53,404 nt of DNA from positions 1 through 53,404 of the forward strand of contig JAFTJQ010000007.1 of assembly GCA_017456285.1 (NCBI GenBank), read 5' to 3'. A model generated the notes under the pieces. It was not told where the DNA came from. It was given only the letters and a program-made list of their open reading frames with translations, and made no database searches. The stretch comes from Lentisphaeria bacterium (GTDB taxonomy: Bacteria; Verrucomicrobiota; Lentisphaeria; Victivallales; Victivallaceae). The translations under genes and the position numbers were made by a program. This document shows, piece after piece, positions 23,594 through 27,298 of this stretch (the first letter of the stretch is position 1; every line of letters begins with the position of its first letter).

Positions 23594-23674
23594 CGAAACC
23601 TAATTTCAAAAAAAACGTTGACAGGACAAAAGCACGAATGTCCTCATAATCAACACGATTGTTTTTTTCTGGAT

Positions 23675-23691
23675 TCAAAGCGTAATATCAT
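23675..23691. repeat. 17 bp direct repeat, left copy
   Basis: TCAAAGCGTAATATCAT is repeated exactly at 25482-25498, so the two lipoprotein genes lie between the copies. Confidence 0.7.
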
Positions 23692-23715
23692 AAAATGTTT
23701 TTTCAAATTTTCAAT

Positions 23716-23743
23716 TTGTAATTTTTTTTGTTTAGTGTATATT
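23716..23743 (+). promoter_or_regulatory. Promoter of the tandem lipoprotein genes
   Basis: TTGTAA (23716-23721), a 16 bp spacer ending TAGTG, and TATATT (23738-23743). Confidence 0.7.
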
Positions 23744-23770
23744 ATTTCATCGGTAAAAAGGAATATAAAA

Positions 23771-24538
23771 GTGAAAAAGTTTATTTCTTATTTTTTGTTG
23801 ATTGCTGCAAGTTTATTTTTATCAAGTTGTTGCAGTTCCACATTGTCGGAAGAAACCATACAGACACTTGATAATTTCAAGGAAAATTCTCCATATATTT
23901 GGGGCGGACGAGAGTTTAAATGCCGTCTTTACCGCAAAGGAAATCATTATTACCTTGAAAGTCAAATAGTGGAAACAAGATTTGATTTAGGACACAAATT
24001 TACAAAGTATCTGGGGGAAAATATTGTCCCCTCCGAACAAGGAATGTTTTTAGGTAACGACGGGAGGATGTACATTAAGTATATAAACAACAAAGGAGAG
24101 AAGTGCGAATCAAGCGTGCCATTCGGCGATATTTACGGCGATAAACATATTTCTGATATTCCTAAAAAAGAAATCTCTTTTAATTTGGGATATGGACACA
24201 TATATGCATGGTCTGAAATATATGAAGTAGGGAAACCGATTGTTGAAGCTCGTCTGCTGGAATTGCAAAAACATGTTCGTAATGATGATGCAGAAGCGAT
24301 TTCAAAAATGCTTATCTATCCAATTTGGATAAATGATCTTTGGGTTGAAAACTATCAGGATTTTCTGAAATACTACCCTTATTTTTTCACAGATTTACTA
24401 AAAAATAATTTATTAAAACTGCAAGGCACAGACATATACTGTAATGTTCTCGGTTTTATGATAAATCGCGGCATGTGGTTCCGTTTAGGAGATGATCGCA
24501 AAGCATATTTGCATGTTCTTTACATGTGGGATTACTAA
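23771..24538 (+). CDS. Lipoprotein of unknown family, first tandem copy
   Basis: The GTG at 23771 is chosen because AAAAAGGAA lies eight bases before it and because it yields a lipoprotein signal, VKKFISYFLLIAASLFLSSC, with cysteine at residue 20. It also gives 255 residues, the same length as the neighbouring paralogue. Longer readings from an upstream ATG would place the signal in the interior. The mature part is rich in Tyr, Lys and charged residues, without motifs I recognise. Blocks such as CRLYRKGNHYYLESQI and GEKCESSVPFGDIYGD are identical to those of the second copy. The protein is predicted to be lipid-anchored in the envelope; function unknown. Confidence 0.75.
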   Translation: MKKFISYFLLIAASLFLSSCCSSTLSEETIQTLDNFKENSPYIWGGREFKCRLYRKGNHYYLESQIVETRFDLGHKFTKYLGENIVPSEQGMFLGNDGRMYIKYINNKGEKCESSVPFGDIYGDKHISDIPKKEISFNLGYGHIYAWSEIYEVGKPIVEARLLELQKHVRNDDAEAISKMLIYPIWINDLWVENYQDFLKYYPYFFTDLLKNNLLKLQGTDIYCNVLGFMINRGMWFRLGDDRKAYLHVLYMWDY

Positions 24539-24565: not shown

Positions 24566-25333
24566 ATGAAAAAATACTATATAATTTTGTTAGTTATTTC
24601 AACTCTATTTTTATCAAGCGGCTGCACTTCCGCGGAAATAGAAATAATACAATCATTTAACAATCATCAGGAAAACTCTCCTCTTTATTTTTTAGGCGGC
24701 AGAGATTATGAATGTCGCCTTTACCGCAAAGGAAATCATTATTACCTTGAAAGTCAAATATTGCAAACCCAATACAATATAGGTTATAAATTTGAAAAAT
24801 ATCTTGGTAAAAATATTAAACTTTACCATAAAAAATTATTTTTGAAAGACGATGGGAGGATGTACATTAAGTATATGAACAACAAAGGAGAGAAATGCGA
24901 ATCAAGCGTGCCATTCGGCGATATTTACGGCGATACGCCACTTTCTCAAATGCGACGCACTAACATCTTCCGGCGTTATAATGGCACATCAAGTGAAAAA
25001 TACGGAGTTGCCGGAATAGACAAAGACGAAGAACCGATTATCGAAGCATTTTTGCCGACATTACAAGAGCATATCCGCAATGATGATGCAGAAGCGATTT
25101 CAAAAATGTTTATTTATCCAATTGAAATAGACATATTCTGTTTAGAGAATCGACAGGACTTTCTGAAATATTATCCGCAAATTTTTACTGAAGAATTAAA
25201 AAATTATATATTAACATTGAAAAATGAAAATATATTCTGCAATTACAAAGGACTGATGTTAGATAGCGGCATGTGGTTCTATCGATTTTATGGCAAAGTA
25301 TATTTTTATACATTTTGGCCATGCGGTTATTGA
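24566..25333 (+). CDS. Lipoprotein of unknown family, second tandem copy
   Basis: This 255-residue paralogue of the preceding gene starts 27 bases after it and has its own lipobox (LSSGC, cysteine at residue 20). Identity between the copies is patchy: two stretches are nearly identical at DNA level (about 24709-24769 and 24850-24935 here), while the intervening parts have clearly diverged. That suggests an older duplication with local gene conversion, or strong constraint on two segments. The C-terminal parts share DDAEAISKM.IYPI and an ending with SGMWF. No known family was recognised. Confidence 0.75.
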   Translation: MKKYYIILLVISTLFLSSGCTSAEIEIIQSFNNHQENSPLYFLGGRDYECRLYRKGNHYYLESQILQTQYNIGYKFEKYLGKNIKLYHKKLFLKDDGRMYIKYMNNKGEKCESSVPFGDIYGDTPLSQMRRTNIFRRYNGTSSEKYGVAGIDKDEEPIIEAFLPTLQEHIRNDDAEAISKMFIYPIEIDIFCLENRQDFLKYYPQIFTEELKNYILTLKNENIFCNYKGLMLDSGMWFYRFYGKVYFYTFWPCGY

Positions 25334-26697: not shown

Positions 26698-26723
26698 ATA
26701 AAAATCAAATATTTTCTGCATTT

Positions 26724-26872
26724 TTGTTTTAAAAATGCGAGAGGCGATGTTGTAAATTGACCGAAGTGTACTTAAGGTACACGAGATGTCAATTTCAACA
26801 AGCCTATCCTTTTTCAATAATCACAAAACTTTGCATACCGATGAAAACAGTTTGAGCGAGAGCGAACACAGA
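26724..26872. repeat. Long palindromic element, copy 1
   Basis: The core is a long inverted repeat. GTGTAC/GTACAC flank TTAAG, enclosed by ATTGAC/GTCAAT and further by TGTTG/CAACA and AGGC/GCCT. A tail of about 60 bases (GTTTGAGCGAGAGCGAACAC) is shared with copy 2. The unit repeats with a spacing of 193 bp. Confidence 0.8.
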
Positions 26873-26910
26873 AAAAAAAACTAATTAAAATTAAAAAGTA
26901 ATTTGTAGTA

Positions 26911-27063
26911 TTTTTTTTGTTTTGAAAATGCGAGAGGCGATGTTGCAAATTGACCGAAGTGTACTTAAGGTACACGAGATGTCAATTTCAACAAGCCTAT
27001 CCTTTTTCAATAATCACAAAACCTTGCATGCCAATAAAAACAGTTTGAGCGAGAGCGAACACA
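26911..27063. repeat. Long palindromic element, copy 2
   Basis: Nearly identical to copy 1 through the palindrome and the tail. It starts with a T8-GTTTTGAAAA flank that also opens copy 3. The distance to copy 3 is 190 bp. Confidence 0.8.
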
Positions 27064-27100
27064 AGAAAATTGATAATAAATAAAAATAATGAAAATATCA

Positions 27101-27212
27101 TTTTTTTTGTTTTGAAAATGCGAGAGGCGATGTTGTAAATTGACCGAAGTGTACTTTAGGTACACGAGATGTCAATTTCAACAAGTCTATCCTTTTTCAA
27201 AACAAAAAAAAA
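27101..27212. repeat. Long palindromic element, copy 3, abutting tRNA-Leu
   Basis: In this copy even the flanks pair: T8-GTTTTGAAAA (27101-27118) is the exact reverse complement of TTTTCAAAAC-A8 (27194-27211), so the whole 112 bp can fold. It lacks the tail of copies 1 and 2 and ends directly at the 3' CCA of the tRNA gene. Confidence 0.8.
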
Positions 27213-27298
27213 TGGTACCCGGAGCGGGACTTGAACCCGCACGTCTAAAAAGACAACAGATTTTAAGTCTGTTGCGTCTGCCATTCCGCCATCCGGGC
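27213..27298 (-). tRNA. tRNA-Leu (anticodon UAA)
   Basis: The 86 base gene reads on the minus strand from GCCCGGA, with D-loop AATGGCAGACGC, an anticodon stem AACAGA/TCTGTT around CTTAAAA (anticodon TAA), a variable arm of class II length, and the T-arm GGGTTCAAGTCCC. The acceptor strand TCCGGGT, discriminator A and an encoded CCA complete it. A G-U pair closes the acceptor stem. A T-rich tract follows at once, then a palindromic repeat. Confidence 0.95.

What the first reader, a model, noticed from the sequence alone, without database searches (positions are those of the whole stretch)
26724..27212. Three long palindromic elements in tandem beside tRNA-Leu
Units spaced 193 and 190 bp apart carry an almost identical foldable core of about 90 bases: GTGTAC/GTACAC inside ATTGAC/GTCAAT inside TGTTG/CAACA inside AGGC/GCCT. 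Copy 3 has 18 bp perfectly inverted ends and abuts the tRNA 3' CCA. tRNA 3' ends are typical integration sites, so these may be MITE-like or site-specific elements. They could also be processed tRNA-operon structures or binding arrays.
Basis: partly seen in the sequence, partly recalled or inferred. Interest (0 to 1): 0.7.

Follow-up and report, generated by a model that had tools for sequence, protein, structure and literature searches.

The report
Mobile hairpin repeats behind gene ends
A roughly 190-base DNA repeat built around a long, precisely shaped hairpin has spread through this bacterium only to the spots directly behind tRNA genes, while its cousins in related bacteria sit directly behind the stop codons of protein genes, which points to a little-studied kind of small mobile element aimed at gene ends.

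Summary
Three tandem copies (spacing 193/190) of an ~110-nt palindrome lie at 26721-27211; copy 3 has perfect 18-bp inverted ends abutting the CCA of tRNA-Leu(TAA). The genome holds ten hairpin copies, in a wider repeat unit, at six loci, all downstream of tRNAs (Leu, Arg, Asn x2, Met, Gly) and all in the same polarity; end fragments flank tRNA-Thr. None lies elsewhere.

Covariance models link it to a family found in 7 other species of the same taxonomic family (137 genomes of the order searched). Stem sequences differ but pairing is compensated, and unpaired internal loops (CUC / UUCG or GUCG) are conserved. In one genus 29 of 34 copies start 1-32 nt after a sense stop codon (7% of random positions). 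In another, weaker relatives carry 15-bp inverted repeats and mostly 6-bp target duplications: true MITEs.

Best explanation: a MITE-like, non-autonomous hairpin element inserted or retained only at gene 3' ends; here, the T-tract behind tRNAs. Stems show no G.U excess over A.C, favouring DNA-level rather than sense-RNA maintenance. No transposase was found, and mobility in this genome is inferred. No Rfam match; the closest analogues are SPRITE, RUP, ERIC and Correia repeats. Verdict: real, new variant of a known kind.

The parts
27213..27298 (-). tRNA-Leu (anticodon TAA); its CCA end faces the array; directly followed (minus strand) by T9-G
   Evidence: ARAGORN, Rfam RF00005 59.6 bits, trailer table
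27101..27211 (-). Hairpin copy 3, tRNA-proximal, complete: 18-bp inverted ends T8GTTTTGAAAA ... TTTTCAAAACA8
   Evidence: (I2), fold z -7.5, model R1 core 27114-27198, 107.9 bits
26911..27010 (-). Hairpin copy 2: distal inverted arm present, tRNA-proximal outer arm replaced by ...GTTTTGTGATTATTG
   Evidence: model R1 core 26924-27008, 111.6 bits
26721..26817 (-). Hairpin copy 1, most distal, distal arm decayed (TTTTTGTTTTAAAAATGC)
   Evidence: model R1 core 26731-26815, 110.6 bits
27044..27061 (+). Unit-specific distal motif TTTGAGCGAGAGCGAACA between copies 2 and 3
   Evidence: pattern search of the whole genome
26851..26868 (+). Same distal motif between copies 1 and 2
27101..27118 (+). Distal 18-bp terminal inverted arm of copy 3
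27194..27211 (+). tRNA-proximal 18-bp terminal inverted arm of copy 3 (includes the T8G tract that is also a common tRNA trailer in this genome)

Best explanation
The three units are copies of a short, non-autonomous, MITE-like mobile element whose body is a long hairpin with conserved unpaired internal loops. A transposase-type protein (not identified) probably recognises that hairpin or its ends as DNA. Insertions are made, or survive, only immediately behind the 3' end of a transcription unit and in one polarity; in this species that niche is the T-tract directly behind the CCA of tRNA genes. Once one copy is in place, tandem duplication of a 190-210 bp unit, starting inside the 5' arm and ending in the tail, lengthens it into an array. 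Shown: copy number, locations, polarity, structure with compensated stems, homologous family, array anatomy. Shown only in the weakly matching relative G069/G070: inverted ends with target duplications. Inferred: that the copies in this genome moved by the same chemistry, and the existence and identity of the recognising protein.
For: In the own genome model R1 finds ten copies at six loci, all downstream of tRNAs in tRNA sense, behind unrelated tRNAs; rough chance for 5 independent loci about 1e-12. R1 hits relatives in G038 and model R2 hits this genome's C59 copy at 36 bits, E 8e-7. The family occurs in G032, G050, G045, G038, G002, G018 and G069 and in no genome outside the taxonomic family. 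Stem covariation: A3 6 pairs/14 cells with two-sided change (shuffled 2.8/5.0), A4 12/28 (shuffled 4.9/6.6), sliding controls at most 2 pairs. 29 of 34 relatives start 1-32 nt after a sense stop codon against 7% of random positions; 2 of 34 have a convergent gene end at the other side. In G069/G070, copies bounded by GTCGRTTATGYAAAA inverted repeats are flanked in most cases by exact 6-7 bp direct repeats such as TATTTA, GAATTA, TAACTA, TTGTTA. G.U 27 versus A.C 37 in the stems points to DNA-level maintenance.
Against: No target duplication, empty site or transposase is visible in this genome; congeneric tRNA flanks were too diverged for an empty-site comparison. Y1_Tnp is absent and no autonomous partner was seen near single G069 ends (inspection only). 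The G069 MITEs match R2 at only 16-31 bits and R1 near noise. Copies kept at orthologous gene ends between species about 88% identical suggest long retention, which is also compatible with a function.
Confidence: 0.62

Rival explanations
1. A functional 3'-end RNA element: after the stop codon or tRNA, the transcribed hairpin terminates transcription, blocks exonucleases or is cut by an RNase, and is kept by selection at the RNA level.
For: Strict sense polarity and 1-32 nt distance from stop codons; conserved unpaired loops and compensated stems; retention at orthologous sites.
Against: G.U is not commoner than A.C in the sense strand (27 vs 37), as it should be if sense RNA were selected; only 8 of 137 genomes of the order carry it, and few genes in each (R1 for G000); no U-tract follows the hairpin; behind tRNAs a T7-9 tract comes before the hairpin, so the hairpin may not be transcribed; no Rfam match.
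Confidence: 0.22
2. A passenger of tRNA-flank recombination: one ancestral palindrome was copied among tRNA 3' flanks by gene conversion through the shared T8G trailer and lengthened by slippage, without any transposition.
For: T7-8G follows most tRNAs here (32 of 43 have at least 6 T after CCA); the two tRNA-Asn copies are a duplication that includes the tRNA flank; the C14 copy mixes two stem variants; subtypes differ at orthologous sites in relatives.
Against: Relatives sit behind protein genes with no shared trailer; G069 copies have target duplications; the C59 copy lies about 300 bp from the tRNA with both arms intact.
Confidence: 0.11
3. Attachment-site remnants of larger integrative elements that use tRNA 3' ends.
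For: tRNA 3' ends are classic integration sites (general knowledge); the Gln(TTG) flank carries repeated copies of the tRNA 3' end (L105).
Against: No integrase-bearing island was seen; no match in the phage, plasmid or viral collections searched; relatives are not at tRNAs.
Confidence: 0.04

Closest known systems
[quoted passage not shown]
   Same: Short palindromic repeat, A/T-run inverted ends, strongly enriched at the 3' ends of coding genes, restricted to a few species, MITE-like, target duplication not established.
   Different: SPRITE has one 18-bp duplex followed by a U-rich tract; here the stem is longer, has several conserved internal loops, no U-tract follows, units form arrays and, in this genome, copies sit only behind tRNAs.
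RUP, Correia/NEMIS and ERIC repeats (bacterial MITEs; PMC2229807, PMC10969869)
   Same: 100-200 bp, transcripts would form long stem-loops, inverted ends, target duplications (seen in the G069 relative), many copies per genome; ERIC effects on upstream transcripts depend on orientation.
   Different: Those have TA-type termini; here the relative has 6-7 bp duplications. Strand-specific abutment to gene 3' ends and a tRNA-only distribution are not among the features found in these reviews (the word tRNA does not occur in either text).
REP/REPIN elements with RAYT (Y1) transposases
   Same: Extragenic palindromes thought to be recognised as hairpins (general knowledge).
   Different: Several times longer; no Y1_Tnp gene in this genome or its two congeners.
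Integron attC sites
   Same: Variable sequence, conserved fold with unpaired bases, repeated in arrays (general knowledge).
   Different: By inspection the R-box pattern (5' AAC ... GTT 3') is absent and in reverse here; arrays carry no cassettes.
Palindrome about 10 bp downstream of Methanopyrus kandleri tRNAs (PMC5217627)
   Same: Palindrome at a fixed place behind about half the tRNAs of one genome.
   Different: Only about 19 bp, archaeal, no large hairpin or tandem units.

Membership tests
MITE (miniature inverted-repeat transposable element) | Short, no coding capacity, multiple copies per genome | tested here: met
   About 110-nt hairpin in a 190-bp unit; ten copies at six loci in G000
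MITE (miniature inverted-repeat transposable element) | Terminal inverted repeats | tested here: met
   18-bp perfect arms in copy 3 and similar arms at C91, C35, C42, C14, C59; internal array copies lack one arm
MITE (miniature inverted-repeat transposable element) | Target-site duplication on insertion | tested here: inconclusive
   Not seen by inspection in G000; 6-7 bp duplications in most complete G069/G070 relatives
MITE (miniature inverted-repeat transposable element) | Ends shared with an autonomous element whose transposase acts in trans | tested here: inconclusive
   No autonomous partner found in own-genome matches or near single G069 ends; search not exhaustive
REP/RAYT | Y1 transposase encoded in the genome | tested here: not met
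   PF01797 absent in G000, G001, G002; rings in 5 of 14 controls
Rfam structured RNA family | Covariance-model match | tested here: not met
   No element match at gathering threshold or at E up to 1
Intrinsic transcription terminator | G+C-rich hairpin followed by a U-tract on the sense strand | tested here: not met
   The T-tract precedes and an A-tract follows the hairpin on either strand of copy 3
Functional sense-strand RNA | Stem variation shows G.U in excess of A.C | tested here: not met
   27 G.U versus 37 A.C cells in 37 unique relatives; some stem columns are poorly aligned
Functional sense-strand RNA | Expression as a defined transcript | not testable with these tools
   No RNA data held
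tRNA-integrating genomic island | Integrase gene next to the tRNA with attL/attR direct repeats | tested here: inconclusive
   Nearest neighbours are an AAT/choloylglycine-hydrolase-type enzyme and a PTS EIIA protein, with unnamed ORFs further out; not every ORF was searched

The most novel reading that the evidence does not exclude
A dedicated transposition system of this bacterial family that reads a multi-loop DNA hairpin and delivers it, in fixed polarity, to the 3' ends of transcription units (behind tRNA CCA ends in one lineage, behind stop codons in others), adding tandem units there: a bacterial counterpart of the tRNA-flank-targeting retroelements of eukaryotes.
Probability: 0.22. Interest if true: 0.75.

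Novelty: new variant of a known kind. Interest (0 to 1): 0.5.

Why it matters
If right, it is an undescribed hairpin-repeat family with an unusually strict address, the 3' end of a gene in sense polarity. It would make target choice of small bacterial mobile elements testable, show how tRNA flanks fill with palindromes, and supply a structured DNA substrate with conserved loops from which to look for the recognising protein.

Tried and rejected
Rfam scans: nothing but tRNA and sub-threshold miRNA noise. Phage, plasmid and viral-contig searches: no match. Y1 transposase: absent. MAFFT alignment of both subfamilies together misplaced the 3' arm and was not used. Empty-site comparison with congeneric tRNA-Leu(TAA): only the tRNA aligns. 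Single G069 ends inspected for an autonomous partner: none seen. attC reading: rejected by box orientation. A first impression that the T8G tract is the insertion duplication was dropped because the far side carries A8, not T8.

Full report
Observation. The sequence at 26721-27211 is as described: three units, spacing 193 and 190 bp, with nested complementary arms; copy 3 has perfect 18-bp inverted ends next to the CCA of tRNA-Leu(TAA), minus strand. Folded alone, the copy-3 strand is 7.5 standard deviations better than shuffles. Read in the tRNA's sense the order is tRNA-CCA-T9-G-TTTTGAAAAAGGATAG-hairpin-GCATTTTCAAAACA8, then an A+T-rich tail holding TGTTCGCTCTCGCTCAAA, then the next unit.

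Copies in the genome. BLAST and model R1 find ten hairpins at six loci: C21 (this window, 3), C91 (2 plus a half), C35 (2), C42 (1), C14 (1), C59 (1). ARAGORN puts a tRNA beside every one: Leu(TAA), Arg(CCG), Asn(GTT) twice, Met(CAT) and Gly(GCC); in C59 the element is about 300 bp downstream of the tRNA. All are in tRNA sense; truncated ends also flank tRNA-Thr(TGT). The tail motif occurs only in these units. A rough chance estimate for five independent loci in the 400 bp behind a tRNA, right strand, is about 6e-13. The tRNA-proximal copy has the complete outer arm; internal copies have it replaced by the tail end of the preceding unit, and the most distal copies are decayed.

Structure. In the ten copies 30 pairs form in 98.7% of cells, 6 pairs change on both sides (14 cells; shuffled 2.8 and 5.0), and no partner slide gives any. 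Unpaired loops are nearly invariant: UU/(A)UUC and NNCUC/UUCG around a GUGUAC/GUACAC apical stem. One copy (C14) combines 5' and 3' halves of two variants, a sign of recombination between copies.

Relatives. R1 over 78 genomes of the family hit one further genome, G038. BLAST from there reached G032, G050 and others, and model R2 built on 14 of these finds about 40 copies in G032, G050, G045, G038, G002 (same genus as the window), G018 and G069, none outside the family among 137 genomes of the order. The link is reciprocal: R1 scores these relatives at 24-38 bits, R2 scores this genome's C59 copy at 36 bits, E 8e-7, in the right orientation. Stems are different sequences but compensated (12 pairs, 28 cells; shuffled 4.9 and 6.6); the CUC/(U,G)UCG loop is kept. 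Tandem arrays of 203-216 bp units occur in G032 and G002, again with the gene-proximal copy complete and the following ones lacking the outer 5' arm.

Position in relatives. Of 34 copies in the G032/G038/G045/G050 genus, 29 start 1-32 nt after a stop codon on the same strand; 2 have a convergent gene end at the other side; random positions score 7%. ORFs were found mechanically. Several sites are shared between species whose flanking genes are about 79-88% identical, sometimes with a different hairpin subtype at the same site.

Mobility. In G069 (weaker matches: R2 16-31 bits, R1 near noise) BLAST finds about fifteen copies bounded by GTCGRTTATGYAAAA inverted repeats (45 pattern hits, control 0). 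Most complete copies are flanked by exact 6-7 bp direct repeats (TATTTA, GAATTA, GGATTA, TAACTA, TAGTTA, TAAATA, TTGTTA, TGTTGTA; G070 TATTTTA, TAAATA), in 318-bp two-hairpin and about 120-bp one-hairpin forms. That is the signature of a MITE. Whether the hairpins of the window move the same way is inference.

RNA or DNA. If a sense RNA were selected, G.U intermediates should outnumber A.C. In 37 unique relatives they do not (27 against 37), which favours maintenance as DNA (hairpin recognition or arm-to-arm correction). Alignment errors in one stem soften this. The hairpin is not an intrinsic terminator by form: its T-tract precedes it.

The tRNA niche. 32 of 43 tRNAs of this genome have at least six T directly after CCA, commonly T7-8G, also behind tRNAs with no element. 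The element's arm begins with the same T8G. I read the T-tract as the native tRNA trailer and likely terminator, and the site just behind it as a harmless landing place; this is inference.

Known kinds. SPRITE of pneumococcus, found near 3' ends of coding genes (PMC3049150), and the RUP, Correia and ERIC group (PMC2229807, PMC10969869) are the closest. Mechanistically it works like a MITE; formal membership is incomplete, because target duplication and an autonomous partner are unproven in this genome.

Noticed in passing
tRNA 3' flanks of the own genome, e.g. L081, L082, L090, L094 and congeners L062, L067: Other palindromic repeat arrays (ATGAAGCC..GGCTTCGCTTCATG units) follow directly behind His, Val, Phe and Pro tRNAs, often after a T7G-NNN..NNN'-CA7 stem.
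   Followed up: partly
L105 (G000:C87, tRNA-Gln TTG): 45-57 bp tandem repeats downstream carry copies of the tRNA 3' end itself, GACTGCCATTTTTTTG.
   Followed up: no
L010 / G000:C42:54264 and 54484: Truncated element ends on both sides of tRNA-Thr; the first joins the distal flank to the proximal arm, as if inverted through the arms.
   Followed up: partly
L190 (G032:C49) and L206 (G002:C250): Arrays about 90% identical between two genera, with no similarity seen in the flanks held: horizontal movement or a misbinned contig.
   Followed up: partly
window 23618-24538 and 24566-25333: Two adjacent, similar proteins without any Pfam match, probably a tandem duplication of an unknown lipoprotein-like gene.
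   Followed up: no
L108:476-517 (G001:C107): A 42-bp partial copy of the tRNA-Leu 5' half lies just upstream of tRNA-Leu(TAA) in a congener.
   Followed up: no
L085, L068, L114: Val tRNAs in G000 and G001 share the trailer TCCTTCGCTAAAGCTACGGATGGCAGGCCG, another repeat.
   Followed up: no
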